IMG/VR virus record: IMGVR_UViG_3300042878_002532
Span: 1-64,000 of that record
DNA: 64,000 nucleotides
Strand: one strand, 5' to 3'
Origin: a virus
Made by a program: the position numbers and the translations under genes
In this document: piece by piece, positions 401-59,660 of the stretch
Numbering within the stretch: the stretch's first letter is position 1
How the letters are laid out: every line of letters starts with the position of its first letter
The notes under the pieces: model-generated
What the model saw: the letters and a program-made list of their open reading frames with translations, nothing else
The model's database searches: none
What the model was told of the DNA's origin: nothing

Positions 401-811
401 ATGTTTAATATAAGGCTGTATATGGACAAGATATACACCGTTACTATATCATTTGAAGATTGGGAAAGTTCTTCTTTCAATACTGTTGGATTTTTTTCCG
501 ATAAGAAAATGGCTGAAGAAACAATGAAGAAGTGGAAAGATTTCTTTGAATATCATGACAAAGAGATATTCAATCTACAAAGAGATTCAAATGGAAACTT
601 TGAAAGTGATGAGATAGAAGATGAATGGTATTCTAGAGCATCTAAATATGAACAGATACGTTCGTATTCCGGAGTATCAATTGAAGAGTTTCCTTTTAAT
701 ACGGACATCTTCATAAAACAAACACAAATGCGTTCAAAGGAAATGCAGGGACTTGTTCAACAATGGGAAAGAGATTACAAAATAAAAAAAATAACAGACA
801 AAAATGAATAA
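401..811 (+). CDS. Hypothetical protein upstream of nusA
   Basis: A 136-residue acidic, helical protein that I do not recognise. The start may be the ATG at 401 or, more likely, the ATG at 422 (MDKIYTVTISFEDWE). Its last codons overlap the start of nusA by 8 nt, which suggests translational coupling and a shared transcript. No signal peptide or membrane segment is visible. A role linked to NusA is possible only from position. Confidence 0.75.
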   Translation: MFNIRLYMDKIYTVTISFEDWESSSFNTVGFFSDKKMAEETMKKWKDFFEYHDKEIFNLQRDSNGNFESDEIEDEWYSRASKYEQIRSYSGVSIEEFPFNTDIFIKQTQMRSKEMQGLVQQWERDYKIKKITDKNE

Positions 812-2033
812 CTTATTCGAATCATTTACAGAGTTTAAAGATGCTAAGAACATCAACAGACAGGAAATAATGGGTATTTTAGAAGATGTCTTCAGAAACT
901 CACTTATCAAAAAATTTGGTAGTGATGAAAACTTCGACATAATCGTAAATACAGACCAGGGAGATTTAGAAATCTTCAGAAACAGAGAAGTAGTTGAAGA
1001 TGATTTTGAAGGATTTGACAAAAACCTTCATATCAAACTATCCGAAGTTATAAAGTTTGAACCAGACTTTGAGGTTGGTGAAGAGTTTACTGATGAAGTA
1101 AAATTGGCAGAGTTTGGTCATAGAACCATACTTGGAATCAAACAGAATCTTCTTTCTAAAGTAATGGATCTTCAAAAGAGTAACATCTACAACGAATACC
1201 AGAAAAGAATCGGTGAGGTAATCTCTGGTGAGGTTATCTTCGCAAACAAAAGAGAAACTATTGTTCAAGATTCTAATGGTAACGAACTTGTATTACCTAG
1301 AAACGAACAGATGCAGTCTGATTTCTTCAAAAAGGGAGACTATGTAAAAGCGGTCGTTGTTTCTGTAGAAAACGAACACAGACCGGTAGTCATTCTTTCA
1401 AGAAAGTCTGAGAGATTACTTGAACATCTTTTAGAGTTTGAGATTCCTGAGATAATGGATGGTCTTATAACAATCAAAGAGATTGCTAGAGTTGCTGGTG
1501 AAAAGTCTAAAGTTGTTGTAGAGTGTTATGATGATAGAATAGACCCGATTGGTATATGTGTTGGTTCAAAGGGTTCTAGGTTGTTTAGTATAAAGAAAGA
1601 GCTTAATGGTGAAAACATTGATATAATCAACTATACTCAAAATAATTCTTTACTTATACAGAGAGCTCTTAGTCCTGCGAAGTCTTCTTTAGTGAAGATT
1701 GACGAAGATACAAAGAAAGCAACGGTAACTATGAAAGGTGATCAGATTGCTTTGGCTATTGGTAAAGGTGGTGTTAATATAAAACTGGCACGTATTCTTA
1801 CTGGATATGACATAGAAGTATATAGTGAGGATGCGGAGGTTGAAGAAGACGTAATGATTGACGAGTTCCATGATGAGATTGACGAATGGATAATCAATGT
1901 ATTCAAAACGATAGGATTGGATAGTGCAAAAAGTATATTGGATCTTTCTATTGAAGAACTTGTTAAAAGAACAGATTTAGAAGAAGAAACAATAGAAGAA
2001 GTTCTAAAGATACTAGGATCGGAGTTTGAGTAA
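804..2033 (+). CDS. nusA: Transcription termination/antitermination factor NusA
   Basis: A 409-residue NusA homologue. NusA binds RNA polymerase and nascent RNA and controls pausing, termination and antitermination. The N-terminal polymerase-binding domain starts MNNLFESFTEFKDAKNI, as Bacteroidetes NusA proteins do. An S1 domain follows (about residues 135-200; GEVISGEVIFANK), then two KH domains: KH1 with IKEIARVAGEKSKVVV and DPIGICVGSKG, KH2 with IALAIGKGGVNIKLA. The acidic C-terminal tail ends in a short helix-hairpin-like segment. Length fits bacterial NusA of this group. It is intact, so it probably acts on host polymerase to favour phage transcripts. A full-length NusA is unusual in a phage. 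It overlaps the preceding gene, and a terminator hairpin covers its stop codon. Confidence 0.95.
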   Translation: MNNLFESFTEFKDAKNINRQEIMGILEDVFRNSLIKKFGSDENFDIIVNTDQGDLEIFRNREVVEDDFEGFDKNLHIKLSEVIKFEPDFEVGEEFTDEVKLAEFGHRTILGIKQNLLSKVMDLQKSNIYNEYQKRIGEVISGEVIFANKRETIVQDSNGNELVLPRNEQMQSDFFKKGDYVKAVVVSVENEHRPVVILSRKSERLLEHLLEFEIPEIMDGLITIKEIARVAGEKSKVVVECYDDRIDPIGICVGSKGSRLFSIKKELNGENIDIINYTQNNSLLIQRALSPAKSSLVKIDEDTKKATVTMKGDQIALAIGKGGVNIKLARILTGYDIEVYSEDAEVEEDVMIDEFHDEIDEWIINVFKTIGLDSAKSILDLSIEELVKRTDLEEETIEEVLKILGSEFE

Positions 2034-7028: not shown

Positions 7029-7039
7029 CTCTTTTTTTT
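7011..7039. terminator. Bidirectional terminator
   Basis: Nine-base stem AGAGTCAAG/CTTGACTCT with an A run before and T run after, between converging genes. Confidence 0.85.
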
Positions 7040-8658
7040 TATTTTTTATTTATAAGATTTTTAAACTTTTCAAATTTGGCAATAATCTTTTTGTTATCGT
7101 GATCAATCTGAATGTTGTTAGGTTCCATTGCTTTTCCGGCACCTGCCTCAACAAACTCATCTCTTGTAACATCTTTAGTATTACCTTCTTTGTCAGTTAT
7201 CTGATAGTCAAAGTTTTCGTTTGCCATTGGTTTTCCAAACTTATCTAATTTAGTAACATTTTCTGCACCGATTACTTTATTGTCCATCTCAGGTTCTCTA
7301 CCTTTTGATTCTGATGGATCTCCCCATTTTTGATTTAAAGTAAACTTAACTCCGGAAAGGTCATTGAATATTTTGTTTTTAAATAAGTCGATGAATCTAA
7401 GTCCTTGATAAGGAGCAACATCACATGTTCCAAAGATGTTTGAGATAGAACCGATACCACCGTGTCCACCAGAAACCGTAATCTCATCTTGACCGATTGT
7501 AGTGTCAGGGTCATGATATCCTAAATGTTGTTTGAAGTTTGTAAGTAAGCTTGTCATATAAACTCCTAAATCATCGATTGATTTACCATCTTTGTATAAA
7601 GGAAGATTTTCTGTTTGACCCATTTTTTTGTAAGCACATACTTGAAGAGTACCACCATATTGAAGTAATATGAATTTAGGTTCTGAATCAATCTTACCAT
7701 CTTTGAAGTCTCTTTCAACGATTGTTCTTGCTCTTAAAGCATTTGCCCAAGTTCCTGTTGGTACGAATACTAAATCTCCAAGTTTTAAATACCCGTCTAA
7801 TCTAAGTGCCCCACCTTTCCAGAACATACTGATAAGTTCTTGTTGAGAATTAAGTGTTTGTTTTGCACCAGTACCTCTTGTTCTTTTTTGCATCGTAGAA
7901 AGTCTCCATTCTGAATCTTTCATAAACTCTTTCTTACCATATTTAGTAGCGTTGTGCTCAGGGTAAAGTGCTTTCATTGTGTTAAAGATTGCATAGATAG
8001 AAGCATCTTTACAATTTGCAATAACTGCGATTAAAGTTTTTACATCCGATCTTTTTAAGAACTGATTAAAAGCTGCTCCAAATTCAAGTCTTTTCTTATC
8101 TGATTGTTTAATCTCTGCTAGATTAAAATCTAACAATCTTTGCCAATCAACACCATAGTCTTGGTATTTTGCAGCATCAATCATATCTATAACTGAAACA
8201 ATTAACTCATCTTGTGGAAGTCCTAATACAATACAAAGTGCTTCATATGCAGATGATGTTGCCAATTTTTTAACTGGTGAATCTTTATATTTGTCTAAAT
8301 CAGCAGCACTGAAAAGTCCGTGGTGGTCTAAGTAGTAATCTACTAACTCATCTCTTTCATCACCAGGCATGTTTGCGAAGTCAAGAACAATATTTATAAG
8401 TTTTGGATCAAGCGTAGTATATTTCCATCCTTCTGAATAATTTACAACACCGTACTTTACGATTTCGAATCCGTGGTCTAACAACCATTTCTTCATCTCG
8501 ATTGCACAGAAGATACCATCCATGTCATCGTGTGTATATAAAGCGACTTTCTTACCAATCTTTCCTTTTCCGATCCAATACTGCTCATCTGTAGAAGGAG
8601 TTCTAAGAGCTGCTTCCTCGTTGATATTGACCCAGTTGTTAAACTTTTTAATTCTCAT
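7039..8658 (-). CDS. Tagged DHH-family phosphoesterase
   Basis: A 539-residue DHH-superfamily phosphoesterase, the fold of RecJ and NrnA (oligonucleotide, nanoRNA or cyclic-dinucleotide cleavage). Metal motifs: THDDMDG at 42-48, a lone Asp in VLDFANM near 93 and the signature LDHHG at 110-114. A later SGGHGGIGSISN resembles the DHHA1 substrate loop. The N-terminus MRIKKFNNWVNINEE fits the capsid-targeting-like tag, so the enzyme may be packed in the head and injected. It is the last gene of a leftward operon with two other tagged proteins; its own late-like motif lies 20 nt upstream. The last 90 residues are polar and unassigned. Confidence 0.88.
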   Translation of the reverse strand: MRIKKFNNWVNINEEAALRTPSTDEQYWIGKGKIGKKVALYTHDDMDGIFCAIEMKKWLLDHGFEIVKYGVVNYSEGWKYTTLDPKLINIVLDFANMPGDERDELVDYYLDHHGLFSAADLDKYKDSPVKKLATSSAYEALCIVLGLPQDELIVSVIDMIDAAKYQDYGVDWQRLLDFNLAEIKQSDKKRLEFGAAFNQFLKRSDVKTLIAVIANCKDASIYAIFNTMKALYPEHNATKYGKKEFMKDSEWRLSTMQKRTRGTGAKQTLNSQQELISMFWKGGALRLDGYLKLGDLVFVPTGTWANALRARTIVERDFKDGKIDSEPKFILLQYGGTLQVCAYKKMGQTENLPLYKDGKSIDDLGVYMTSLLTNFKQHLGYHDPDTTIGQDEITVSGGHGGIGSISNIFGTCDVAPYQGLRFIDLFKNKIFNDLSGVKFTLNQKWGDPSESKGREPEMDNKVIGAENVTKLDKFGKPMANENFDYQITDKEGNTKDVTRDEFVEAGAGKAMEPNNIQIDHDNKKIIAKFEKFKNLINKK

Positions 8659-8678: not shown

Positions 8679-8689
8679 TATATATTAAA
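8679..8689 (-). promoter_or_regulatory. Late-promoter-like motif (long spacing)
   Basis: TTTAATATATA on the minus strand, 20 nt before the start at 8658; it overlaps the end of the upstream gene. Confidence 0.55.
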
Positions 8690-9629
8690 TTTTTTTGATG
8701 ATTATTCGTATATAATCATTACTAAAATCTTTATATGTTTGTTCAATTTTCCAATCATAGTCTTCTAATCGATTATTCGCCACTTCAATCACTTCTTTGA
8801 ACCTTTCGTCCTCTGTCATTTTAGTCAGTAATGATTGTATCATGTTTCTGTCTGCTTGTGTTCTTCCATATTCTGGAACGGATATAGCATCTGACTTAAC
8901 TCTTACCTCTATAAAAGGAAAGTGTTGGAATGTCATCTTAGGTGCAGACATTGGAGTGTCGAACATCAGGTTTCCATTTTGTCCAAGCATACTTTTAAAC
9001 TCTACGAATACTCTTAATCTTTCAGGAAATATGTCAAGGTCTTGTAAATCATAGAACATCTCTTTAACATCTTCTGGATATAGTCCATAATGTTTCATTG
9101 CGGTCTCATCATCTACTGATTCGTTTATATCTTCATCTTCGTCATCAAAATATACGTAGTCGTCAGGCTGTCTTTCTATTATGATAGATACGCAGTTTAC
9201 CTGGGCGATACCGTAATCTCCGTCTCTCTTTATCTTTCCTGTAGTATATGGTCTGTCTTTAACTACATGAACGTCATATACTTCTTCGAGATGTTCTTTC
9301 AGCTGGTTGAAGTATTCGTCTGGTATTTCTTTTTGATTGAAAGTATGCGAATTCTCATGCCTGTGTATTTCGGCATCTATATCGAAGTATACCTGTATTT
9401 TGTATATTCCTACTCCATCGAAAGACTCGTCTACTTTAGTCGATATGTCATCGCTTGTACCTATCATATAACGGTTTGGTGAATCTGATGCCATCTTTTC
9501 CGTTACGAAGTATTTAGCCTTTACTCCTTCGTCTGACAATATGTAGTCGAGTGCGGCGATGTCTTCTAACAAATCTTTTATTTTAGGTTTGTCGGTATTG
9601 AAGTCTTCATATAGTTTTAAGTATTTCAT
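8685..9629 (-). CDS. Tagged hypothetical protein
   Basis: A 314-residue acidic protein, MKYLKLYEDFNTD at the N-terminus (tag-like: Tyr, two residues, Phe, Asn, then Asp). Two halves each contain charged strands ending in similar Ile-rich elements (VSIIIERQPDDY near residue 157, YIRIIIKKI at the end), which could be a duplicated domain. Function unknown. It overlaps the amidoligase gene by 4 nt. Confidence 0.8.
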   Translation of the reverse strand: MKYLKLYEDFNTDKPKIKDLLEDIAALDYILSDEGVKAKYFVTEKMASDSPNRYMIGTSDDISTKVDESFDGVGIYKIQVYFDIDAEIHRHENSHTFNQKEIPDEYFNQLKEHLEEVYDVHVVKDRPYTTGKIKRDGDYGIAQVNCVSIIIERQPDDYVYFDDEDEDINESVDDETAMKHYGLYPEDVKEMFYDLQDLDIFPERLRVFVEFKSMLGQNGNLMFDTPMSAPKMTFQHFPFIEVRVKSDAISVPEYGRTQADRNMIQSLLTKMTEDERFKEVIEVANNRLEDYDWKIEQTYKDFSNDYIRIIIKKI

Positions 9630-11020
9630 TTCTTTCCACCAGTTTTTCCGAATCCTGAGATGATTCCTTTATCTTTACCTTTTTGTGGGTCTTCATTGAA
9701 CTTAGTATCAAAGAAGTTTGCGTTGTCGTTTACTACTTTAACTTCAGAATCCATAGTTGCGTACGGTCCAAGCTCACCTGATCTAAATACACCACCAAAC
9801 ATATCTCCATTAAGATAGCCTTCCATGAAATAACAATTTGTAAGTCCTGAGTTATCTACTCTACAATTAAGAACTTTTGTGTTATTTGCATCACAATGTG
9901 TTAGAGTTGATTTACTTACTTGAGAGTTTGTCATCTCAGTTCCTAAGAAATTACATGATTCAAATATTCCTTCAATCGTGCAGTTTATGAACTCATAATT
10001 TTTTAGAGTAGTTGTTGACTTAACAATAGTATCAACTATTTCCATAGTCTGTGTTGATGTTACATAGTTGATTATACACTCTTTAAGATCGTTTGTACCA
10101 TCTATTAGATTGTATAACTTAGTGTATATCTTTCCATAGTATGCATTTATTGTATCATAATCACTTACCTGGTCTATCTGTATCTGTATTGTTGGAAAAT
10201 CTACTAAGAAGTTATCATACTTTGAAAAGTTTTTGAACAACTTGATATTATCTTCAAGATATTCTTCAAGTTTTGTTACATCTTCTGAGTTAAAGTTTGT
10301 ATCTGTTGAATCAAATACATCGATTATGAATCTATCCATAAAGTATGTCAACTGACCTATGTTCTTTTCATAATCTTTTCCACCAATATATCTAAACTCA
10401 AGTCTTTGATGTTCTTTATCATTGTTTATATTTACAAAGTTTATACCATAGTATTTGTCGTTTGGTACTCTTAGGTTGTTCTTAACGGTGTCGATGGGAA
10501 TATTGAAGAAGTCATACTCTTTGTATGGTATTATCTTTTTAATAGTCTTTGCATATACGTTGTCTTTTCTCGAAGGAAACACTCTGTATATCTCATCTTC
10601 GTCTGTGTTTAGTATAAGTTTGAGTATATTTAAGTCATTTAAGTCTTTATCTTCACTATTAAACGAAAGGTTAAAGTGTATAGAACATTTATCGTTGGTA
10701 TATCCATATGTCTGTATAAACTTTATTATCTTTACTAAATAGTATTTTGCATCATAATAATCTAATGGGCCAGTTACAAGCTCAACCATGTTTGAACCAC
10801 CCGAAAGATCCGGTTCTATTTTGAAGTTGTTTTCGTCTGGCGTGAAGTCAGAGTGGTATTGTCTGAATCCCCATACCTTTACAGGTGCCAAATCTACATT
10901 TAGCATCTCTAATGTTTTGTAGAAGGATAGATCCTTCATATAGAACTCGAACTCGAAACCTATTCTGGCATGTTTCAACTTGCTTGATTGGTTTATGAAT
11001 TTATCCGAATATTTTTTCAT
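9626..11020 (-). CDS. Tagged amidoligase with pentapeptide-like repeats
   Basis: A 464-residue protein. The amidoligase-family core (glutamine-synthetase-like fold; ATP-dependent amide or peptide bond formation) is visible as IGFEFEFY at 20-27, IEPDLSGGSN at 68-77, VELVTGPLDY at 79-88 and SIHFNLS at 113-119. From about residue 340 to 430 the sequence turns into quasi-pentapeptide repeats (NYEFINCTIEG, ESCNFLGTEM, NTKVLNCRVDN), a right-handed beta helix. The N-terminus MKKYSDKFINQ fits the capsid-targeting-like tag. A late-like motif ends 4 nt before the ATG. First gene of a leftward operon with two other tagged genes. Confidence 0.82.
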   Translation of the reverse strand: MKKYSDKFINQSSKLKHARIGFEFEFYMKDLSFYKTLEMLNVDLAPVKVWGFRQYHSDFTPDENNFKIEPDLSGGSNMVELVTGPLDYYDAKYYLVKIIKFIQTYGYTNDKCSIHFNLSFNSEDKDLNDLNILKLILNTDEDEIYRVFPSRKDNVYAKTIKKIIPYKEYDFFNIPIDTVKNNLRVPNDKYYGINFVNINNDKEHQRLEFRYIGGKDYEKNIGQLTYFMDRFIIDVFDSTDTNFNSEDVTKLEEYLEDNIKLFKNFSKYDNFLVDFPTIQIQIDQVSDYDTINAYYGKIYTKLYNLIDGTNDLKECIINYVTSTQTMEIVDTIVKSTTTLKNYEFINCTIEGIFESCNFLGTEMTNSQVSKSTLTHCDANNTKVLNCRVDNSGLTNCYFMEGYLNGDMFGGVFRSGELGPYATMDSEVKVVNDNANFFDTKFNEDPQKGKDKGIISGFGKTGGKK

Positions 11021-11024
11021 AGAA

Positions 11025-11035
11025 TATATATTAAA
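11025..11035 (-). promoter_or_regulatory. Late-promoter-like motif (short spacing)
   Basis: TTTAATATATA on the minus strand, 4 nt before the start at 11020; transcription starting a few bases downstream would give a leaderless mRNA. Confidence 0.6.
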
Positions 11036-11154: not shown

Positions 11155-11544
11155 ATGAATTTTTTCTGTGTTTATGTCAAGACTCGTAAGAAGATGGATA
11201 AGTACATAAAGGTTAATAAGGTTAAGAACAAGTATATAATCGACATAAAGAAGATAATAGAAGAAGAAGAGTTATCTCATTCCGAAGACAAAACCTATTT
11301 GAAGATAATAATATTCAATAAGATACAACAAGCTATCGATAAGAAAAAGGATATTTATTACATACCTGACTTTGACAACGAGTTTTCAATAGAAAAACTC
11401 TTGAATCTTAAAAAGATACTTGGAGACAACGACTTCAACGTATTAGTATTCTACAACGAGTTTAGAAAAAACCCTGAAATTATAGATGATGTTTTCAGTA
11501 ATTTATCTAAATTTTCCAATTCGCAAATTATCAGAGATTATTAG
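11155..11544 (+). CDS. Hypothetical protein
   Basis: A 129-residue charged protein. The start is either the ATG at 11155 or the one at 11194 (MDKYIKVNKVKNKY), which gives a more typical N-terminus. The C-terminal part has an alternating strand-helix pattern (VLVFYNEFRKN). No family recognised. It precedes the first tail gene. Confidence 0.7.
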   Translation: MNFFCVYVKTRKKMDKYIKVNKVKNKYIIDIKKIIEEEELSHSEDKTYLKIIIFNKIQQAIDKKKDIYYIPDFDNEFSIEKLLNLKKILGDNDFNVLVFYNEFRKNPEIIDDVFSNLSKFSNSQIIRDY

Positions 11545-11562: not shown

Positions 11563-11573
11563 TTTAATATATA
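11563..11573 (+). promoter_or_regulatory. Late-promoter-like motif (long spacing)
   Basis: TTTAATATATA, 20 nt before the tail gene start at 11594. Confidence 0.6.
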
Positions 11574-11593: not shown

Positions 11594-13591
11594 ATGGCAA
11601 TATTAGGTGGATCACCCCTCGGACTCATAGGACTTAAAAGTGTACCTACCAATGGTATGTCTGGATTCAACGCGGGTGCCTCAAGAAACGTAATTGTTGC
11701 GGACTATAACCGTTCCAAATCACTTTCTTTATTTACTGGTAAAAGAAGATTGAGAGCTTGGCCGAATTTGGCGGGTAAAACTGCTAAAGATCCCGGTGGT
11801 GCAGGTATAGATCCATCTGAGACTCAAGATACTACGGGTTTAGCAGATGTTTATGTTAATAAACAAGGTAAGCTTGTAGATGGTTATACTCCTTCAATAG
11901 AATCAAACTCAAGAGGTAGTAACCTTTTACACAACAATGATGTATATGATACCAGTGTTCTAAATATTTTAGAAAAGTTGGCAAAAACAAAGGCGGCTCT
12001 AAGACCTACCGATTTTGCTTATTTAAAATATTTAGGAGTATATCCTAATAATAGACTAATGATTGCGAGAAGATTTGTCGCACCATCTGGAGATAATATA
12101 ATGGTTAACAGAACTACTAAAGAAGTTCCTTCTATTGCAACGTTGGTTAGTTGGATTCCAGAAGGAACAGACTTTTTGGAAATCAGCTTTGGTGAGGTAT
12201 GGACAGAGGCAAAAGCCGATTTTACCGGAATGTTGAACAGCTTAGGTGAAGATTTCTCTAAGTCCGGTATGGGTAAAATAGCAGGTGCTGCTGGTAACGT
12301 ACTACCACTTCCGGGATTCACTGAGATATTTCAAAGAGCTTTCTTAGCTAAGATTGGTTTGTTAGAAGAAGATGCTGCAAACCAGATACCTGCCGGAAAC
12401 CCAAACTTAATTAAAGAAGCTAAGGTTAGAAAAACTGTTGGTTATAGTGAACCTGGATCAGGATTGATGGCTAAGATAACTATAAAGATGACTTGTGAAT
12501 ATGAACTTAAATTCATTGCAGGAATAGATCCTACTATAGTTTGGATGGATATAATAGGTATGATAGTAAGATTTGGAACTTCTGAATCTTCAAACTATGG
12601 TTTAAGTCAAGGAGTTGCTGCAAAGTTAGCTAGATGGGCTGCCAACCCTTATACGTTGATATCTGATGTTGTTTCGGGTATAAAAAATGCAATAACGTCT
12701 GCTCGATCAAAACTTGAAGAAGCGGTGACTGCAGTTTATAACGCAGCGACTGACGCTGCTAAGAATCTTAGTGATGGAAGTACTTCTGGTGATGAGAAAG
12801 AAATTTCAGAAAAGGCTGCCGCAGAAACTGCAGCGACGGAGGCAAAGGATGCTGGTTTTAATCTTATAGCCAAGCTTGTTGATATCGGAGAATCTGTTAT
12901 TAAAGCAGCGGTTATGAAATATAGAGTAGAGGTAATGGGTATTGTTAACGCACTTACCGGAAACCCTTCTACTCCTTGGCATATAACGATTGGAAATCCA
13001 ATGAGACCGGTTTTTTGTTCTGGTGACATGCTAACGACAAGCGTAGTTTTGAAGCTTGGACCAAATTTGGCGTTCAACGACCTTCCTTCTAGTATAATAG
13101 CAGATTTTGAGTTGACTAACGCTAGAAATCTTGGTATGCAAGAAATTATGGCAAAGTTTAACTCTGGTTATTTGAGAACAGTCGATGTTCAAAAAACTTT
13201 CTTTGAAACAACCGTCAAATTTGGAGCAGATGGAAAAGTTGCTTCACAGGAACCAGTTGGTGTTATGCCTGGAGAAGCAGAGTTCAAAAGTGATCTTGGT
13301 ACAAGTGGTACATCTGGAGCAGGAACATCTGGTACAAATGGAAACCAAGGTGGTGGAAACACTAACAATGGTGATACAAGTGGTAAAAGCGGTGATACTA
13401 GTGGTACTCAGGGCACTCAGGGTACTCAAGGTAATATAGGTAAAACTGAGACTTCAACTAATGTCAAAGAAGTTCCTGGTTCGGGTACACAAAAAACTTT
13501 GACTAAAGAAGAACAAGCTAAGTTAGATAAAGCAACGGCGGATGCAAAGGCAACAGCCGAAAAAAGCAAAATGACGGGTAAGAAAAAATAA
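11594..13591 (+). CDS. Tail/baseplate structural protein with GTS/GTQ linker
   Basis: A 665-residue protein that opens the tail gene cluster. The first 500 residues are a folded structural region (NPSTPWHITIGNPMRP and SGDMLTTSVVLKLGPNLAF look like a virion beta domain) interrupted at 370-420 by an Ala/Thr-rich helical stretch. The C-terminus is low-complexity: Gly-Thr-Ser repeats, then SGTQGTQGTQGN, then a Lys/Ala helix. The same linker type occurs in two other baseplate genes here. The exact T4 counterpart is unclear. It shares a transcript with the LysM and M15 peptidase genes. Confidence 0.75.
   Translation: MAILGGSPLGLIGLKSVPTNGMSGFNAGASRNVIVADYNRSKSLSLFTGKRRLRAWPNLAGKTAKDPGGAGIDPSETQDTTGLADVYVNKQGKLVDGYTPSIESNSRGSNLLHNNDVYDTSVLNILEKLAKTKAALRPTDFAYLKYLGVYPNNRLMIARRFVAPSGDNIMVNRTTKEVPSIATLVSWIPEGTDFLEISFGEVWTEAKADFTGMLNSLGEDFSKSGMGKIAGAAGNVLPLPGFTEIFQRAFLAKIGLLEEDAANQIPAGNPNLIKEAKVRKTVGYSEPGSGLMAKITIKMTCEYELKFIAGIDPTIVWMDIIGMIVRFGTSESSNYGLSQGVAAKLARWAANPYTLISDVVSGIKNAITSARSKLEEAVTAVYNAATDAAKNLSDGSTSGDEKEISEKAAAETAATEAKDAGFNLIAKLVDIGESVIKAAVMKYRVEVMGIVNALTGNPSTPWHITIGNPMRPVFCSGDMLTTSVVLKLGPNLAFNDLPSSIIADFELTNARNLGMQEIMAKFNSGYLRTVDVQKTFFETTVKFGADGKVASQEPVGVMPGEAEFKSDLGTSGTSGAGTSGTNGNQGGGNTNNGDTSGKSGDTSGTQGTQGTQGNIGKTETSTNVKEVPGSGTQKTLTKEEQAKLDKATADAKATAEKSKMTGKKK
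13306..13440 (+). repeat. GTS/GTQ-coding low-complexity repeat
   Basis: Imperfect 9-base units coding Gly-Thr-Ser, Gly-Thr-Asn and Gly-Thr-Gln near the C-terminus of the structural protein. Confidence 0.8.
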
Positions 13592-13602
13592 TTTTATAGA
13601 AA

Positions 13603-14082
13603 ATGGGAATGAGTATTAAATCACTTGTTGAAGCTAGATGGATAAATAGAAAATGGGATTTGAATATTCCTTCTTTTAAAGTGGATGCCGCTCAGTTAGA
13701 CATATATGTTGTTCAAAGAGGTGAGGATATGAGATTAGATTTGGTTATGAAGTCTATGTATGATGACATATATACTTTCGCACAAGCCGATATTATATTA
13801 CATATAAACCATATTGATAATCCTCTCAACATAAGAGAAGGTATGGTACTATACTATCCACCATCAGAATCACTCGATGATTTTAGATACTATGAAAGTG
13901 GAAATGTTGCATCAAATAAATCTATCAAACAAAGATTAGGAGTTTTAAATAAAACAACGAGAACAGATGAGAAAAGGAAAAAATTCCTTGATGCAAACTA
14001 TTCTTTACCTCCTGTAGTTCTTCAAGAGAACAGGGCCGGTGTTACTGTTGGTGTTAGTACTATAAAAGTCGGTGGACTTTAA
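13603..14082 (+). CDS. LysM-type baseplate protein (gp53-like)
   Basis: A 159-residue protein, starting at the ATG at 13603 (MGMSIKSLVEARW). The central part is LysM-like: a strand IYVVQRGEDMRLDLV, a helix around MKSMYDD, and the closing NIREGMVLYYPP. T4 baseplate wedge protein gp53 has a LysM-related fold, and the position among tail genes supports a similar role. The C-terminal tail is polar with DANYSLPPVVL. It lies 11 nt after the large tail protein gene. Confidence 0.75.
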   Translation: MGMSIKSLVEARWINRKWDLNIPSFKVDAAQLDIYVVQRGEDMRLDLVMKSMYDDIYTFAQADIILHINHIDNPLNIREGMVLYYPPSESLDDFRYYESGNVASNKSIKQRLGVLNKTTRTDEKRKKFLDANYSLPPVVLQENRAGVTVGVSTIKVGGL

Positions 14083-14101
14083 TAAAATAAAGAATTAAAA
14101 A

Positions 14102-15763
14102 GTGGCATATAAAGAAATACCTAAACCAAATTGTACAGTTTATGTACCTACTTTTGCTGATCAATATACTACTGATGTTAGTGTATTAGTTCTTTTCCCG
14201 GGAATACCGGTTGGTGGTAAAACTGGTAAGACTTATTTTCCACCTATGATAAAGGCTGGTGCTCCTACATGGTTTGATAAATATGTAATTGTTATTCCAA
14301 ATGAGCATACCACAAAATGGGATTCTGTTAAAAAAGAATATGGTGAGGCAATGGCTAGTGTTCCACAAGGAACGGGTAAAGATCCAAAGTACGTATTGGT
14401 TGAAAAAACCGTAAGTATTGGAGTTTTTTCGGGTAGTGGAAATGGAACCGCTAATATTCAATCAAAGCTTGTCTCTATAAAGCCAACACATTTGATAATA
14501 ATGGACCCTTCTGCTTCTGGTCCACTCACTCAAAACGTTAAGACATTAGTTAATAAAGGAACATCTTGTTATCTTATGTATAATCCTACTAACTGGGATA
14601 GTTTTCCCGCACTTAAAAATGGATTTCCTTCTTTAGTTGCGGCTGTTGATACTGGTGTGAATAAATCTCAAAAAGTCAAGTTGGGACATACTTCAATTCC
14701 ACCACAAACTCTTAAAACATTTGCACCGGATATTGAAAAAAAGTTGATTACACCCACACAGAAACCTGAAGAACAACCACCAGTTGTAGAGGAAAAAAAA
14801 ACTGATGAGCAGGTAGCCGCAGAGGCCAACCAAGATGCCGCGGGTAAAACACAATCTACTTCACCAAAATGGAATATAACCATAGATGGTTTAGGAGATT
14901 CTGCGGTTGGTGCTGCCCCGGTTGCATATGAAATTAGTGCTAAAAAAGATCTTCCTGGCTTCACTATATACGTTGGAAATCCAGCAACTGATTGGGCTAG
15001 ATTTGGAGAGACGGTTCCTCCTGATGGTGATAACTTTGAAGATGTTGGTGATGATGAAGAGTATACTGAAGGTGGATTCGCGGGAGCCGAAGAGATGGGT
15101 ATAGAATTTGAGGAGATGGAGGCCGCACCTAGTGCGGAAAGAGCGGCAGAGGCTGCATCTGTAGTAGAACAACTTGAGAATTCTGAACCTATTAATGTCG
15201 GTAATCATAAATTAGATTTGATACCAGGTACATTCGTAACAAACGGTGGTACTAAAATACAATGTTGTCAGATTAATGGCTCTGCCGTGAATGTTAAGAT
15301 TGCGGGTGCGTATTTAGATATGGTTGCGGCTGCCAAAAAAGATGGTGTTACAATATCTATAGGATCTGGATTTAGATCACCTTATGATAGTATTAATACA
15401 AAATCTTCTTCTGGTGTAAAAGTAAGTGCTAGTTCACAACAGTCCTTATATGATTCCTATTTAGCAGGAAAAGGTAATGTGGCTGCAAAACCTGGTAACT
15501 CGAATCATGGAAATGGTATTGGATTAGATACAAACGCCGGTGGTAAATCAAAAGGAAGATTTATAAACGTAAATCAGAAAGTTTATACCTGGTTGGTCAA
15601 AAACTCATGGAAGTATGGATTCGTTAGAGCGGTTAAGAACGAAGAATGGCATTTCGACTACCTACCAGACCTTGCTAAAAAAGGACCTTATGGTAAAATC
15701 GCAGGAACTGATGCCAATAAATTTTACTCAGATTGGGGACTTGATAAATTATCAATCACATAA
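14102..15763 (+). CDS. Tail-associated M15 peptidase (VanY-like)
   Basis: A 553-residue protein starting at GTG (MAYKEIPKPNC); no nearby ATG fits better and an A-rich stretch precedes it. The N-terminal 210 residues are an unassigned alpha/beta domain, followed by Pro/Glu-rich and acidic linkers. The last 170 residues are an M15 peptidase (D-Ala-D-Ala or L-Ala-D-Glu cleavage): IGSGFRSPYDS, zinc ligands in SNHGNGIGLD, and EEWHFDYLP with the catalytic Glu and last His. It probably cuts peptidoglycan peptides during tail penetration. Fibre-like opening residues resemble those of the hub protein at 23790-27602. Confidence 0.88.
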   Translation: MAYKEIPKPNCTVYVPTFADQYTTDVSVLVLFPGIPVGGKTGKTYFPPMIKAGAPTWFDKYVIVIPNEHTTKWDSVKKEYGEAMASVPQGTGKDPKYVLVEKTVSIGVFSGSGNGTANIQSKLVSIKPTHLIIMDPSASGPLTQNVKTLVNKGTSCYLMYNPTNWDSFPALKNGFPSLVAAVDTGVNKSQKVKLGHTSIPPQTLKTFAPDIEKKLITPTQKPEEQPPVVEEKKTDEQVAAEANQDAAGKTQSTSPKWNITIDGLGDSAVGAAPVAYEISAKKDLPGFTIYVGNPATDWARFGETVPPDGDNFEDVGDDEEYTEGGFAGAEEMGIEFEEMEAAPSAERAAEAASVVEQLENSEPINVGNHKLDLIPGTFVTNGGTKIQCCQINGSAVNVKIAGAYLDMVAAAKKDGVTISIGSGFRSPYDSINTKSSSGVKVSASSQQSLYDSYLAGKGNVAAKPGNSNHGNGIGLDTNAGGKSKGRFINVNQKVYTWLVKNSWKYGFVRAVKNEEWHFDYLPDLAKKGPYGKIAGTDANKFYSDWGLDKLSIT

Positions 15764-15793
15764 AAAAATCCTGTTCTAAGTAACAGGATTTTT
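15762..15793. terminator. Bidirectional terminator
   Basis: Stem AATCCTGTT/AACAGGATT with flanking A and T runs, between converging tail operons. Confidence 0.8.
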
Positions 15794-17374
15794 AGTTATT
15801 GCGGTATCTGAAAGTGTTGTTCCGGCTGCTATGGTAGTCATATCTGGCTTAATTATAATAAGAACAACTCTTCTGTTTTTTTGTTTATTTTCTGCATTTT
15901 TGTTATCTGTGAGTGGTTTTGTTTCTCCCAATCCTTCGGTTGTTATCATTCCTTCTGCAACTCCTTTATCTACTAAATACTTCTTCGTAGATGCTGCTCT
16001 TCTATTTGATAGAGATAAATTACTTTCATTTGATCCATCAGAATCGGTATGTCCTTCAACCTTAAGCTTCCAAGATGTTTCTTTTTTAAGAAGTTCTGCC
16101 AACTTATTCAAGCTTTCAAAACTTTCTGGTCTTATATCAGATTTGTTTGTGTCAAAGTTTAGATTTCTAAATGCAGTTATTACTACTTCTTCTACCTCGG
16201 CAGGTGGAGTAGATGGTGTTCCTGCTATTTTTTCCTCAACCGCAGGTGGTGGAGTAGATGCAGTTCCAGGATCTGGAACAGCTTTGTTAGTCTGAACACT
16301 TTTCGCCGCTTCATCCCAGTCATCTCTTGTAGATAATGTATATGTCAATTTGTTACCATACTTATCTTTATGTACCTCACATAGTTTAAAAAAATCATTA
16401 AGGTCATCTGCTGTAGAAAAAACTTGTGAACCATCTTCTGACCAGTTTCCAACTTTTTTACCTCCTGGATATCCTAAATGTATTTTTATACCAAAATCAC
16501 CGTTTCCATCATCGTTTACTTTTTGTGGTGATGTTAGATTACTTGGAAGAAACTCTGGTCTATCATATTCTTTATCCAACCAAACCATTTGTTTAGAATC
16601 TTTAGTAGTCAATAAAGCAGGTGCTCCACCATATTTTGATATTTTATAAACATCGATATATTGTGAAGGAACTAATATTCTTATTCCTTTAAGTTTATTG
16701 TCTTCTATTGGTGCAACTGCTGGTTTTGTATCGGTTTTAGGTGCGACTACTTCTGGTGTTGATGCAGTTCCTTCTGGTGTTTTATCTTTTGAGTTTTTTA
16801 TCAAAGCATAAGCTCCTGCACCTACTAATGCGGCACCTCCGGCAACTGCGGCAACTGCCAATGCTTTATCTTTATCAAAATTAAATGTAAATCCGGCAGG
16901 AGATCCTGGTGTACTAGCAGTGCCGGCCGCGGTGGCTGACGTAACTGCTACGGCTGTTGCGTTTTTTTCTGGTGTGGTAACTGCCGCAGTCTCGGGCGTC
17001 GTTGTGGTTGTAGTAGTTGTAGCCACTTCTTTAGGTGGATCTAAACTAAAATCAATGTTCAGTCCATACTTTACTGCAAACTCATCTGTTATTATAGCGA
17101 CCATTTCGGTTGCTAATACCTTTGGTGGTGAGAACATCGATGCTTCACCATTCTTTATTATTGTTCCATTGTTGTCAGGAACGACTAAGTTGGTCTGTGG
17201 ATTAGTGAACGGAACTGGAATTCCAGTAACCTCACCTACGGCAGTCCTTTCGGTCATTCCGCTGGCTGCAATTGTTTCGTTTATGGTTATCTTCCCGGAT
17301 AGGTTCTTCTCAAAATTGTTCTGAGTACTACCGTAAAACATCGGATTCGTTATGTATAACTTATATTCTATCAT
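15776..17374 (-). CDS. Baseplate protein with dead L,D-transpeptidase-like and OmpA domains
   Basis: A 532-residue modular protein. Residues 1-115 match the N-terminus of the GH19 baseplate protein at 22366-23790 (VPFTNPQTNLVV here, INPFTNPITNAVV there), so this is probably a shared docking domain. A Thr/Ala/Pro linker with a hydrophobic stretch (AVAAVAGGAALVGAGAYALI) follows. Residues about 225-360 resemble the L,D-transpeptidase-like enzyme at 49195-49791, but the Ser-Glu-Gly-Cys site is SEDGSQVF, with no Cys. The C-terminus is an OmpA peptidoglycan-binding domain (NFDTNKSDIR, EGHTDSDG, LSNRRA). It likely anchors the baseplate to the cell wall. Confidence 0.85.
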   Translation of the reverse strand: MIEYKLYITNPMFYGSTQNNFEKNLSGKITINETIAASGMTERTAVGEVTGIPVPFTNPQTNLVVPDNNGTIIKNGEASMFSPPKVLATEMVAIITDEFAVKYGLNIDFSLDPPKEVATTTTTTTTPETAAVTTPEKNATAVAVTSATAAGTASTPGSPAGFTFNFDKDKALAVAAVAGGAALVGAGAYALIKNSKDKTPEGTASTPEVVAPKTDTKPAVAPIEDNKLKGIRILVPSQYIDVYKISKYGGAPALLTTKDSKQMVWLDKEYDRPEFLPSNLTSPQKVNDDGNGDFGIKIHLGYPGGKKVGNWSEDGSQVFSTADDLNDFFKLCEVHKDKYGNKLTYTLSTRDDWDEAAKSVQTNKAVPDPGTASTPPPAVEEKIAGTPSTPPAEVEEVVITAFRNLNFDTNKSDIRPESFESLNKLAELLKKETSWKLKVEGHTDSDGSNESNLSLSNRRAASTKKYLVDKGVAEGMITTEGLGETKPLTDNKNAENKQKNRRVVLIIIKPDMTTIAAGTTLSDTAITKNPVT

Positions 17375-17384
17375 CTTTTATCTT

Positions 17385-19103
17385 TTATTTCTGGAATATT
17401 ATCCATTTTGCTACTATATTTTCTCCCGATTCTTTAGTGAAAGTAGCACCGTTGCCAGATGTTGTATCAACTTTCATATTCTTCAATTTTTCCATCAATG
17501 CAATTTGGGCGGCACTATAAGTTTTCCCTGTCACTGTTATATTAGAGTCTAATAAGGTTTTACCACTAACACTACCTGTTGATGTATATCCGTCTTTTTC
17601 AAGCTTATCTTGAGTTGTCGGTGTTATCGTGGGTGGTGTTAAATCTTCTGATGTTCCACTTGTTCCTGATGTTCCACTTGTTCCTGAAGTCCCACTTGTT
17701 CCCGAAGTTCCACTTGTTCCAGATGTTCCTGACGTTCCTGAAGTTCCACTTGCTGTAGCACCCGCGCTCGCAGGATTGTCCTCGTCAGTAGCAGTGTTAG
17801 ATATAGGACCTTTCATAAAGTCTTTCAAAGTTATCTTAGTACCAATCTTTTCTTCCCAATACTTTCTTTCTTTTCTTTTAAAATCTTTGTCTTTTATCCA
17901 TCCTTTTGTTATCTCAAATTCAACACCGGGCATTGTAGAGAATACATATTGTTTCAACTGCCATACATCTTTGTCGTCTTTATAGAAAGCATAAAGTTTG
18001 TCTACAAATTCGTCAGTGTATTTGTCACCAGACTTCAGACCTTGGTTTCTTATTGAAACTATGTTTAGTTCATATGGTTTTGTGAATACTTTGTAGTTCT
18101 TTATTCTTAACATCTCTAAAAGAACGTCTATATCTGGATTATGTGCTGGTTTCTCCGGTGCTAAATCCATAGGTGCTGATGCTGTTGGTGCATCGACCGG
18201 TGGTTTTTCAAATGTTTGTGTAGTAGGTCCTTCAACAGGAACAAACTTCACCGGCTCTTTGGTTGTTAGTTTGTTTTCATCAACAGTGGATGCCCATGTA
18301 TCTCCTTTTTGTCCTTCTGTTACTGAACCTTTGGCTGCACCACCATCTGTTCTTTCTTGTGTTGCTATACTATCGTTGTCTACGATATAGACGTTCTTAG
18401 ACAATATCTTAGGATCTTTCAATGAAAAGTATAGCTGTACTTGTGCCATTAGTGCAGGAGTCGCCACAACAGGTGAAAGAAGGTTTCCTAAGAAAGGTCC
18501 ACCTTTAGAACCCATAAGTATATTTAGAAACTCATCAAACCAGTTTACAAAATTGTCTCCTAAGATTGCTCTTTGTGTAGAGTTTGGAGATCCTATGTTT
18601 ATCTTTCCAAAGTTGTCTTTTAGGTTTACGTTTATACAGGCTTCTCTTATGTTTATATTGTTGAACTTATGGTCTATTTTCAATCCTTCAGAATCGTTTA
18701 CGTATATCTGAGTTTTGTGGTCGTACAATAGTGCTTTCATTGAAAGATAGTCAGGCTCTGATAGTTGTTCCAACTTTTTTTCTAAGTTCACGTTGTAGTG
18801 ATCAGAAGATATGTATTCCGGTGTGTTTTTGTTTCCATCTTCGAATACTACGGTAACTACTTTACCTTTTTCTGGAAGATTAAAGTTGTTTCCGTTTACG
18901 TCTTTCCAAGGAGTTGCCCATGGAAGATCCTCTACCGATATTTCATATTTGTCGTCTTTACTTTTCTCGTCAAATACGTCAAGAACTCTTATCTTACATC
19001 TTCCTAGTTTTTTAGGGTCGTTGTTGTCTTCGACGGTGCCGATATATGTTTTGTTGGCACTTGCGCCATCCATCTTGTTCTTTACGAAATCTTTTGCACT
19101 CAT
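17385..19103 (-). CDS. Baseplate central spike/hub protein (gp5-like OB domain)
   Basis: A 572-residue protein. The N-terminal part is a gp5/VgrG-type OB fold: TYIGTVEDNNDPKKLGRCKI, then WATPWKDVNG, LPEKGKVVTVVF. A linker of about nine GTS units runs near residues 455-485, and the last 85 residues hold a conserved-looking domain (KTYSAAQIALMEKLKNMK). No lysozyme domain like T4 gp5 is visible, so wall cutting is probably done by the neighbouring enzymes. A late-like motif ends 4 nt before the ATG. Confidence 0.8.
   Translation of the reverse strand: MSAKDFVKNKMDGASANKTYIGTVEDNNDPKKLGRCKIRVLDVFDEKSKDDKYEISVEDLPWATPWKDVNGNNFNLPEKGKVVTVVFEDGNKNTPEYISSDHYNVNLEKKLEQLSEPDYLSMKALLYDHKTQIYVNDSEGLKIDHKFNNINIREACINVNLKDNFGKINIGSPNSTQRAILGDNFVNWFDEFLNILMGSKGGPFLGNLLSPVVATPALMAQVQLYFSLKDPKILSKNVYIVDNDSIATQERTDGGAAKGSVTEGQKGDTWASTVDENKLTTKEPVKFVPVEGPTTQTFEKPPVDAPTASAPMDLAPEKPAHNPDIDVLLEMLRIKNYKVFTKPYELNIVSIRNQGLKSGDKYTDEFVDKLYAFYKDDKDVWQLKQYVFSTMPGVEFEITKGWIKDKDFKRKERKYWEEKIGTKITLKDFMKGPISNTATDEDNPASAGATASGTSGTSGTSGTSGTSGTSGTSGTSGTSGTSGTSEDLTPPTITPTTQDKLEKDGYTSTGSVSGKTLLDSNITVTGKTYSAAQIALMEKLKNMKVDTTSGNGATFTKESGENIVAKWIIFQK
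17648..17757 (-). repeat. Tandem GTS-coding repeat
   Basis: Imperfect 9- and 18-base units coding (Gly-Thr-Ser)n within the spike gene; the complementary strand reads as an open frame of Val-Pro repeats, which is a shadow. Confidence 0.9.
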
Positions 19104-22365: not shown

Positions 22366-23790
22366 CTATGTATAAGAAGATGGATTTTTCTCAAGTACTG
22401 ACCAATAGTAAGTAAATTTTTCTTTTCTATCTGCTAGACCATTGTCACCACCATTAACCCATCTTGATATTTTGGTAACGATATCCATACCTGCTCCTTC
22501 GTTTGCCTTTTTAGGGAAGTTTTTAACACCTTTTGGACCAGCAACACTCCAGAACCAAACAGAACAATCTGCTGCAAATTTTCCTTCTAGTAACTCAGGA
22601 TTTGCCACAACATCGTCTTTTATTCCTTTAGATTTTAAGTAAGTGTTGTATGATGTGTAGTTTGCTCTTCCTGTTATTTGTATATAACCTCTTCCTTTGT
22701 ATCTAACACCATCTCCTGTTTGTGTATTTCCTAAATCTTTTCTACCTTCATATGCCTTACCAGATGCAAACTCTCTCTTCCAAGCAAATTGTCCAGATTC
22801 GTGAGCACATTGTGCAAGGAAGTGAGCTCTTTCAAGTGCACTCTTTATACCATAGTCTTTCATTGCTTTAATAACGTCTGCAGGTGGTGATTTGGATGGT
22901 TTTCCAGGTTTGTACTTAACCATCTCTTTAGCTATTTCTGTTTTCTCTTCTGGTGTGATATTTGAATTTGTATCTTGTGATATTTGTTGGATATATGCAT
23001 CAAAAGTTACTTTTAGTTCTTCATCTCCTGCAAAAATTTCTTCTGAGAATTCTTCATCCATCTCTTCCGCTGGTGGTACTTCTAAAGGTTCTTCTTTGAT
23101 TTCACCAACACCTACTATTGTCAATGTTCCTAGTTCGTTGTTTACTCCTATAAACTGATTGTCTTGTTCTATGTTGAAAGTGAATTCTCCTGCTAAACTG
23201 TCACCACTTGTTCCTGAAGTACCACCAGTTCCAGAAGTCCCGCTAGTACCAGAAGTCCCGCTAGTACCAGAAGTACCTGCTGGAGTTTCAGTGGTTGTTT
23301 TAGTAACGTCACCACTAGTTCCTGATGTTCCACTAGTTCCTGATGTTCCTGATGTACCACTTGTACTTGAATCTGTAGAGTCTGGAGTAGAGTCGGAAGC
23401 ATAAAAATCTATTTCTACTCCAAATAGATTTTTATATCTTTCTTTTATCATATCTCTTGCCGCAGTATCCGCTATGTATTCGTAGTAATTGTCTTTAGTT
23501 ACTTCACTTCCCCATCCAGTAGTGTCACTAAAAGATATTTCTATTTTTTTTTCTGTAACCACTGCATTAGTTATAGGATTTGTAAATGGATTTATAAGAC
23601 CTGTGGCTTCTGCACTTGCTTTCCAATATCCATTTCCATCTTTAGTCGAATTTGGAGCACCATCTTTCACTTTGGAAAAATCATATACACGAACTTTTAT
23701 TTTCGCATAATCGGTTCCAGCAGGTATTGAAGTTACCCAGTTTGCATCGGTGGGTGTTTTATATTTTTTTACTGAATAAATATATTCCAT
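22366..23790 (-). CDS. Baseplate GH19 chitinase-like lysozyme
   Basis: A 474-residue modular protein. Residues 1-130 form the docking domain shared with the OmpA-domain baseplate protein (INPFTNPITNAVV, LFGVEIDF). Two (GTS)n linkers and an acidic segment follow (EEMDEEFSEEIFAGDEE). The last 200 residues are a glycoside hydrolase 19/chitinase-like domain with HFLAQCAHESGQFAW (general acid Glu), GRGYIQITGRANYTSY and WVNGGDNGLADR. In phages this fold cleaves the peptidoglycan glycan chain. A second copy is the free endolysin at 53476-54291. It overlaps the hub gene by one base. Confidence 0.88.
   Translation of the reverse strand: MEYIYSVKKYKTPTDANWVTSIPAGTDYAKIKVRVYDFSKVKDGAPNSTKDGNGYWKASAEATGLINPFTNPITNAVVTEKKIEISFSDTTGWGSEVTKDNYYEYIADTAARDMIKERYKNLFGVEIDFYASDSTPDSTDSSTSGTSGTSGTSGTSGTSGDVTKTTTETPAGTSGTSGTSGTSGTSGTGGTSGTSGDSLAGEFTFNIEQDNQFIGVNNELGTLTIVGVGEIKEEPLEVPPAEEMDEEFSEEIFAGDEELKVTFDAYIQQISQDTNSNITPEEKTEIAKEMVKYKPGKPSKSPPADVIKAMKDYGIKSALERAHFLAQCAHESGQFAWKREFASGKAYEGRKDLGNTQTGDGVRYKGRGYIQITGRANYTSYNTYLKSKGIKDDVVANPELLEGKFAADCSVWFWSVAGPKGVKNFPKKANEGAGMDIVTKISRWVNGGDNGLADRKEKFTYYWSVLEKNPSSYT
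23203..23370 (-). repeat. Two blocks of GTS-coding tandem repeats
   Basis: Two runs of imperfect 9-base units coding Gly-Thr-Ser, separated by a short Thr-rich segment. Confidence 0.9.
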
Positions 23791-32234: not shown

Positions 32235-33290
32235 ATGATTAAAAAGTTTAATCAATACATAAAGGAGGACGTTGCAGGAGAAAAACAACTTCTGTATTAT
32301 GCGTTTGACTGGGATGACAATATATTGAGCATGCCAACGGTTATACACATGGACCATCTTATCGATGGTGACTGGGTTCCTGAGGATGTTTCTACCGCAG
32401 ACTTTGCAAAAGTAAGAGGTGATAGTGAGAACTGGAGAGTAATCAACGGTGATCCTGCTGCAGCTTTTTCTGAATTTAGAGATAGTGGACCAAGAGGTGA
32501 TGTTGCTTTCTTGGAAGATACTAAAAATGCAGTCTCTGCACAAAGATTTTCTCCAGCGTGGGAAGATTTCGTAGAGTGTTTAGTAAACGGATCTCTTTTC
32601 GCTATAATAACGGCGAGAGGACATGAAGCACCATCAATGAAAAAAGGAGTTGAGTGGATAATAGACAATGTTCTTTCTGAAGAACAACTATACGAAATGT
32701 ATAACAACCTATTGAAGTTTGCTTATTTATTCAGACATAACAAAGAGTATGATAGAATATTAAAAGGGCAACCATCTGCACATTCACTTGTTCAACTTTA
32801 TTTAGAAAATTGTGAGTTCGTGGGTGTTTCTGCACCATCAAGAGGTGGTTCACCATCTGATCCAGAACAAGCTAAAGAAGATGCACTTCTTCTTTTCATG
32901 GATAGAGTAAACAAATTTGCGGCAAGTGTTGGATATAAAGCCAAAGTTGGATTCTCAGATGATGACTTAGGTAATGTTAGTCATATAGAAAACCTTGCAG
33001 ACAACTTACACCACGAGCAGTTTCCAAACTTATTATTATTTGTGGTTAAAGGTACAAAATATCCTGAAGACATTACTAAGAAAGTAGTTACTTTTGACGA
33101 GTTCAGAGGTGAAATGAAAGAAAGTCAAGATCCTATGACGACAAGCACTATGTCTATGCAAACTCCTAACGCTGCTATGTCGGCTGGTTTAAATAGTAAA
33201 GACCCTTTTGTGACTAGAGCCATTGGTCAGTCAAAACTTTTAACAAAAATGTCTAAAAACACTTTTGGAAAAAGTAAAAAAAAAGATTAG
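32235..33290 (+). CDS. Tagged HAD-superfamily phosphatase-like protein
   Basis: A 351-residue protein opening with a textbook tag, MIKKFNQYIKED. The HAD motifs follow: motif I YAFDWDDNIL with the two Asp at 25 and 27, motif II Thr in FAIITARGHEA, and motif IV GFSDDDLGN. HAD enzymes use the first Asp as nucleophile on phosphate esters; the substrate is unknown. The last 70 residues are Ser/Thr/Met-rich and basic. If packed in the head it could act on host nucleotides or nucleic-acid ends right after injection. It shares a transcript with the acidic protein. Confidence 0.85.
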   Translation: MIKKFNQYIKEDVAGEKQLLYYAFDWDDNILSMPTVIHMDHLIDGDWVPEDVSTADFAKVRGDSENWRVINGDPAAAFSEFRDSGPRGDVAFLEDTKNAVSAQRFSPAWEDFVECLVNGSLFAIITARGHEAPSMKKGVEWIIDNVLSEEQLYEMYNNLLKFAYLFRHNKEYDRILKGQPSAHSLVQLYLENCEFVGVSAPSRGGSPSDPEQAKEDALLLFMDRVNKFAASVGYKAKVGFSDDDLGNVSHIENLADNLHHEQFPNLLLFVVKGTKYPEDITKKVVTFDEFRGEMKESQDPMTTSTMSMQTPNAAMSAGLNSKDPFVTRAIGQSKLLTKMSKNTFGKSKKKD

Positions 33291-57083: not shown

Positions 57084-57094
57084 TTTAATATATA
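57084..57094 (+). promoter_or_regulatory. Late-promoter-like motif (long spacing)
   Basis: TTTAATATATA, 21 nt before the fibre gene start at 57116. Confidence 0.6.
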
Positions 57095-59629: not shown

Positions 59630-59660
59630 AAAAAAGTCCTTCATTTGAAGGACTTTTTTT
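59630..59660. terminator. Bidirectional terminator
   Basis: AAAAAGTCCTTC/GAAGGACTTTTT between converging genes. Confidence 0.87.

What the first reader, a model, noticed from the sequence alone, without database searches (positions are those of the whole stretch)
9626..11020. Tagged amidoligase fused to a pentapeptide-repeat-like helix
An amidoligase core (GFEFEF, EPDLSGG, ELVTGP, SIHFNLS) followed by quasi-pentapeptide repeats and led by a tag is an unusual architecture. An amide-bond-forming enzyme delivered with the DNA could modify a host protein or peptidoglycan precursors; pentapeptide helices sometimes mimic DNA and bind gyrase.
Basis: partly seen in the sequence, partly recalled or inferred. 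Interest (0 to 1): 0.72.

Follow-up and report, generated by a model that had tools for sequence, protein, structure and literature searches.

The report
Phage amidoligase with pentapeptide-repeat tail
A large phage family carries a well-preserved enzyme of the glutamine-synthetase type joined to a small repeat rod; it is usually encoded among the genes that build the phage tail, so it probably forms amide bonds on a virus part rather than being a tagged protein shot into the host.

Summary
The 464-aa ORF at 9626-11020 (-) is real. It is a glutamine-synthetase-fold amidoligase (about residues 1-314) joined to a short pentapeptide-repeat beta-solenoid (about 315-428). AlphaFold pLDDT is 86; solved glutamine synthetases match at Z 12.6. 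The six metal-ligand positions and the substrate arginine of glutamine synthetase have counterparts kept in all or all but one of 47 relatives. The "tag" is not there: the N-terminus is the first helix and strand of the enzyme fold, and the tag motif of the neighbouring gene is absent from all 98 homologs examined. The fusion is not a local oddity: at least 505 IMG/VR stretches encode relatives, the whole-length architecture persists to 28% identity, and each of 11 genomes tested has exactly one full-length copy. In the most divergent relatives the gene lies inside the virion-assembly operon (hub, S1 protein, amidoligase, neck, gp25, gp6). It lacks the glutamine-amidotransferase partner reported next to other phage amidoligases. 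Best reading: an ATP-dependent amide ligase that modifies a tail or neck protein during assembly, with the solenoid as docking arm. The enzyme is well supported; substrate and timing are inferred. A new variant of a known kind, apparently undescribed.

The parts
9626..11020 (-). whole gene, 464 aa plus stop
10079..11020 (-). glutamine-synthetase-fold amidoligase domain, residues 1-314; predicted ligands E23, E25, D71, E80, H115, E208; also N117 and R210
   Evidence: AlphaFold model; Z 12.6 to solved GS; residue conservation
9737..10078 (-). pentapeptide-repeat-like beta-solenoid, residues 315-428, with invariant N318 and R413
   Evidence: model strands; periodicity; Pentapeptide_4 in 41 of 47 members; solved pentapeptide proteins E 5e-6
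9629..9736 (-). low-confidence, probably disordered Lys/Glu-rich C-terminal tail, residues 429-464
   Evidence: pLDDT under 50 at 432-436 and 438-464
11025..11035 (-). TTTAATATATA, promoter-like motif just upstream of the ATG
   Evidence: 20 in window against 0.23 expected; TAATATA upstream of the start in 29 of 40 related loci
8685..9629 (-). 314-aa gene of unknown function, 4-bp overlap (ATGA) with the amidoligase; tag-like N-terminus
   Evidence: same-strand neighbour in 12 of 37 close representatives
7039..8658 (-). 539-aa DHH-phosphoesterase-like gene with CTS-like N-terminal tag
   Evidence: phrog_4771, weak, E 0.014; tag motif in 25 of 48 copies
11155..11544 (+). 129-aa divergent neighbour of unknown function, very conserved (mostly 78-95%)
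11594..15763 (+). three genes of the tail region (665, 159 and 553 aa); the last carries a VanY D,D-carboxypeptidase domain
   Evidence: the first two recur with the hub gene in distant relatives
17385..19103 (-). baseplate hub/spike protein (Phage_base_V, gp5-type)

Best explanation
The gene encodes an active ATP-dependent amide-bond-forming enzyme (amidoligase) of the glutamine-synthetase fold. Two metal ions held by E23, E25, D71, E80, H115 and E208 would position ATP; a carboxylate is phosphorylated and attacked by an amine. The pentapeptide solenoid at its C-terminus is a docking arm. The enzyme is made as part of the virion-assembly programme and acts on a phage tail, baseplate or neck protein (adding an amino acid or cross-linking side chains) during assembly. 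Shown computationally: fold, conserved active site, architecture, single copy, association with virion-assembly genes. Inferred: catalysis itself, the substrate, the role of the solenoid, the timing.
For: AlphaFold pLDDT 86, pTM 0.81; GS fold, Foldseek E 4e-5 and VIA Z 12.6; phage amidoligases in BFVD. E23, E25, D71, E80, E208 and R210 are in 47 of 47 sequences, H115 and N117 in 46. The spacings ExE, HxN and ExR equal those of Salmonella GS E129/E131, H269/H271 and E357/R359 (residue roles from PMC6529630). All 12 representatives under 40% identity lie within about 8 kb of hub, gp25 or gp6 genes; the next gene on the same strand is a neck-protein homolog in 9 of 12 and the preceding one an S1-domain gene in 8 of 12 (identities). 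A 28%-identical copy has the same order: S1, amidoligase, neck, gp25, gp6. The distant cultured relative Atu_ph07 gp196 lies in a cluster, CDS 170-215, rich in virion proteins (PMC6102473). It is more conserved than the adjacent tail genes: 90% against 57-78% to L006, 72% against 41-43% to L001. One full-length copy in each of 11 genomes.
Against: Operon position does not prove a role in assembly; in the largest genomes the gene is no longer next to the neck or gp6 genes. Related phages with homologous neck and gp6 genes (Lak-C1, PTm1, PAU, MA9V-2, pT24) show no copy, so it is not universally needed. No virion proteome of a close relative exists to my knowledge; whether Atu_ph07 gp196 was in that proteome could not be read. 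No catalysis has been shown.
Confidence: 0.45

Rival explanations
1. It modifies the host cell wall or its precursors, for example to block superinfection, as proposed for other phage amidoligases.
For: PMC10580990 reports that amidoligase with GATase in phage phiEco32 has been suggested to modify the cell wall and prevent superinfection, citing Iyer et al. 2009. The window has peptidoglycan-active genes nearby: VanY domain at 14102-15763, endolysin/GH19-like at 22366-23790, OmpA domain at 15776-17374.
Against: No GATase_6 in 11 genomes or records that carry the gene (all 14 controls ring); the operon context in divergent relatives is virion assembly, not cell-wall synthesis.
Confidence: 0.18
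2. It travels in the virion and acts on host proteins after injection.
For: Virion-assembly context; several neighbouring genes do carry CTS-like tags.
Against: No tag: 0 of 98 homologs match the motif, and the N-terminus is part of the fold.
Confidence: 0.15
3. It is a structural tail or baseplate component in which the enzyme fold is only a scaffold.
For: Operon position; solenoid-type sequence also occurs in long beta-solenoid, fibre-like proteins of the same huge phages.
Against: All predicted catalytic positions are kept in 46-47 of 47 sequences down to about 34% identity, which a scaffold would not need.
Confidence: 0.12
4. It makes a small metabolite (gamma-glutamyl-type compound) during infection.
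For: Fold shared with glutamine synthetase.
Against: No metabolic genes recur next to it; the solenoid suggests a protein partner; operon context.
Confidence: 0.1

Closest known systems
Pfam PF12224 Amidoligase_2 / PHROG phrog_2443 and phrog_7469 'amidoligase enzyme' of phages (e.g. Agrobacterium phage Atu_ph07 gp196)
   Same: Same fold and motif order; profile comparison with gp196 E 4e-12 over residues 48-237; 13 of 47 members match PF12224, best E 5.5e-6
   Different: The window protein itself gives no PF12224 hit; carries a C-terminal solenoid; no GATase partner; encoded among virion-assembly genes
phrog_33777, Salicola phage SCTP-2 gp125 (and gp124)
   Same: Amidoligase domain matched by the family profile, E 2e-13 and 2e-11; gp125 also by hhalign E 1.6e-11
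   Different: Match covers only about positions 76-258; longer proteins (606 aa for gp125); two copies in tandem; unknown function
Uncharacterised viral protein A0A6J5PQ40 (BFVD)
   Same: Whole-length structural match, TM 0.72/0.76 over 447 columns, 20% identity
   Different: No function or context known
Glutamine synthetase
   Same: Catalytic fold and metal-ligand pattern
   Different: About 10% identity; no solenoid in GS; substrate unknown here
Pentapeptide-repeat proteins (MfpA, AlbG, QnrB1, Rfr23)
   Same: Five-residue repeat fold, sequence profile E 5e-6 to 1e-4 for AlbG-like and MfpA
   Different: Only about 13-15 repeat units, fused to an enzyme, not strongly acidic

Membership tests
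Amidoligase_2 (PF12224) superfamily | Matches the curated family profile | tested here: inconclusive
   Window protein: no hit; 13 of 47 relatives hit, best E 5.5e-6; relatives in L028/L073 genomes 18 bits, under the 22-bit cut-off; Atu_ph07 gp196 over it, and hhalign to gp196 E 4e-12
Amidoligase_2 (PF12224) superfamily | Glutamine-synthetase-like fold | tested here: met
   Foldseek E 4e-5, VIA Z 12.6, rmsd 3.4 over 198 residues
Amidoligase_2 (PF12224) superfamily | Conserved metal and substrate residues (ExE, D...E, H, ExR) | tested here: met
   46-47 of 47 sequences; matched to GS by motif, spacing and fold, not by coordinate superposition
Amidoligase_2 (PF12224) superfamily | ATP-dependent amide-bond formation | not testable with these tools
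   needs biochemistry
Phage amidoligase + GATase cell-wall system | Glutamine amidotransferase partner encoded in the genome | tested here: not met
   No PF13522 in 11 genomes or records, five of them huge-phage records of 462-735 kb; controls ring in 14 of 14. AIG2_2 (PF13772) also none, but its control is weak
Pentapeptide-repeat (Rfr fold) domain | Five-residue periodicity and quadrilateral solenoid | tested here: met
   Pfam hit below curated cut-off
DNA-mimic pentapeptide proteins (MfpA/Qnr) | Long, acidic, dimeric rod | tested here: inconclusive
   Short (about 109 residues), net charge 0 to -10; dimerisation not testable here
T4-type capsid-targeted internal proteins | N-terminal targeting peptide ahead of the folded domain | tested here: not met
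   Motif in 0 of 98 homologs, against 25 of 48 for the neighbouring DHH gene and 0.76% background; N-terminus belongs to the fold

The most novel reading that the evidence does not exclude
A widespread, undescribed class of virion-assembly enzymes: a glutamine-synthetase-type ligase with a pentapeptide docking arm that covalently modifies or cross-links a tail, baseplate or neck protein of large T4-related phages.
Probability: 0.3. Interest if true: 0.75.

Novelty: new variant of a known kind. Interest (0 to 1): 0.5.

Why it matters
Phage amidoligases have been annotated for years without a known substrate. Here one large family keeps its active site, its fused docking domain and, in its deeper branches, its place between hub, neck and wedge genes. 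That points to a testable class of substrates, virion proteins, and to enzyme-made amide modification during tail assembly in some of the largest phages known.

Tried and rejected
Tag reading: rejected. DNA mimic: the solenoid is too short and too weakly acidic to favour it, though not formally excluded. Degenerate pseudo-enzyme: not favoured, catalytic positions kept. GATase and AIG2 partners: none found (the AIG2 control is weak). Tenacibaculum phage pT24 gp175, a 436-aa gene next to gp25 and neck genes, looked like a positional homolog but is not related. Bacterial origin: only two short MAG contigs match; one carries S1, neck, gp25 and gp6 genes and is clearly phage, the other was not resolved. 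RNA families around the gene: none. Literature: no description of this architecture found; Iyer et al. 2009 is not held. VIA lists only part of possible folds, so absence of other folds there means nothing.

Full report
What is there. The window is part of a 113-kb IMG/VR virus record. The ORF at 9626-11020 on the minus strand codes for 464 residues. Pfam finds only a sub-threshold Pentapeptide_4 match at 353-398.

Fold. An alignment of 47 diverse relatives gave an AlphaFold model with mean pLDDT 86 and pTM 0.81. The first 314 residues are a glutamine-synthetase-type catalytic domain: Foldseek E 4e-5, VIA Z 12.6, rmsd 3.4 over 198 residues. Viral structure comparison lists many phage 'amidoligase enzymes', and one uncharacterised protein that matches over the whole length (TM 0.72/0.76). 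Residues 315-428 form a solenoid with a strict five-residue period (0 of 20,000 shuffles as strong), and the family profile hits solved pentapeptide proteins (E 5e-6). The five-residue period is clear in 36 of the 47 relatives and weaker in the 11 most divergent ones, although those align over the same length. Residues beyond about 430 are low-confidence.

Active site. E23, E25, D71, E80, E208 and R210 are present in all 47 sequences; H115 and N117 in 46. Glutamine synthetase binds its two metals with E129, E131, E212, E220, H269 and E357 and its substrate with R359; H271 contacts the ADP phosphate (PMC6529630). The ExE, HxN and ExR pairs have the same spacing, and D71/E80 stands for E212/E220 with a gap of 9 instead of 8. 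I had no model coordinates, so this assignment rests on motif order, spacing and fold. E69 could replace D71 as ligand, but is less conserved (44 of 47).

The tag. Many window genes start with a peptide resembling the T4 capsid-targeting sequence (an aromatic residue, two residues, an aromatic residue, then an acidic stretch). The regular expression used for this motif matches 25 of 48 copies of the neighbouring DHH gene, 0.76% of internal methionines, and none of 98 amidoligase homologs. I wrote that expression after looking at the window's N-termini, so the comparison between genes counts, not the absolute rates. The amidoligase N-terminus is the first helix and strand of the enzyme fold; the catalytic E23 lies only eight residues after that helix.

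Surroundings. In relatives above 55% identity the gene lies near a 665-aa gene and a 129-aa gene (35 and 34 of 37 representatives) and a DHH-type gene (34 of 37). In all 12 representatives below 40% identity it lies near hub, gp25 or gp6 genes, typically hub, S1-domain protein, amidoligase, neck protein, gp25, gp6 on one strand (identities). The pattern holds in a 28%-identical copy on a phage contig binned as a bacterium. Representatives at 40-55% identity are looser: 3 of 9 have a hub, gp25 or gp6 gene nearby. In the largest genomes the neck and gp6 genes lie far away. The gene is better conserved than the adjacent tail genes. A promoter-like TTTAATATATA stands just before it, a motif found 20 times in the window against 0.23 expected, with TAATATA upstream in 29 of 40 related loci. 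Distant amidoligases in the cultured jumbo phages Atu_ph07 and SCTP-2 are detectable by profile; the Atu_ph07 one lies in a gene cluster rich in virion proteins. Lak-C1, PTm1, PAU, MA9V-2 and pT24 show no match. Eleven carrier genomes or records each have one full-length copy and no GATase_6.

Reading. The enzyme is very likely intact. The long-lived link with neck and baseplate genes makes a role in virion assembly the best guess for its substrate class, with the solenoid as a protein-docking arm. The same kind of solenoid sequence appears in long fibre-like proteins of these phages, which fits a virion setting but is weak evidence. Cell-wall modification, delivery to the host, a structural role and small-molecule synthesis remain open with lower weight. 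It is a divergent member of the amidoligase superfamily by fold and residues; strict Pfam membership is inconclusive, and the known amidoligase-plus-GATase system is not met.

Noticed in passing
window, 20 sites, e.g. 11025-11035 (-), 11563-11573 (+), 57084-57094 (+): TTTAATATATA occurs 20 times against 0.23 expected, mostly just upstream of ORFs; before the amidoligase it ends only a few bases from the ATG, suggesting a phage-specific promoter and very short leaders.
   Followed up: partly
window 7039-8658, 32235-33290, 33362-35212, 38304-38891, 59659-59928 and others: Many genes begin with T4 capsid-targeting-like peptides, often with an IxE-type site after them; a set of candidate packaged proteins, including a DHH-phosphoesterase-like one.
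   Followed up: partly
window 804-2033 (+): Phage-encoded NusA (NusA_N, S1 and KH domains).
   Followed up: no
window 14102-15763 (+), 15776-17374 (-), 22366-23790 (-): Cell-wall-related domains in the tail region: VanY carboxypeptidase, OmpA, and an endolysin/GH19-like domain joined to a collagen-like repeat.
   Followed up: no
window 11155-11544 (+): 129-aa gene divergent from the amidoligase, mostly 78-95% identical between phages, more conserved than its neighbours, with no known family.
   Followed up: no
L099 13967-17727: Salicola phage SCTP-2 has two tandem amidoligase-domain genes (gp124, gp125).
   Followed up: partly
L106 1-5933: Contig binned as a Deltaproteobacteria MAG is phage: S1, GIY-YIG-like endonuclease, amidoligase, neck, tagged genes, gp25, gp6.
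   Followed up: partly
L115 1698-6473, L116 1129-3198, L117 1375-5349: Very long phage proteins made of NGxF/GGxW-type repeats with short stretches matching the amidoligase solenoid; probably fibre-like beta-solenoids.
   Followed up: partly
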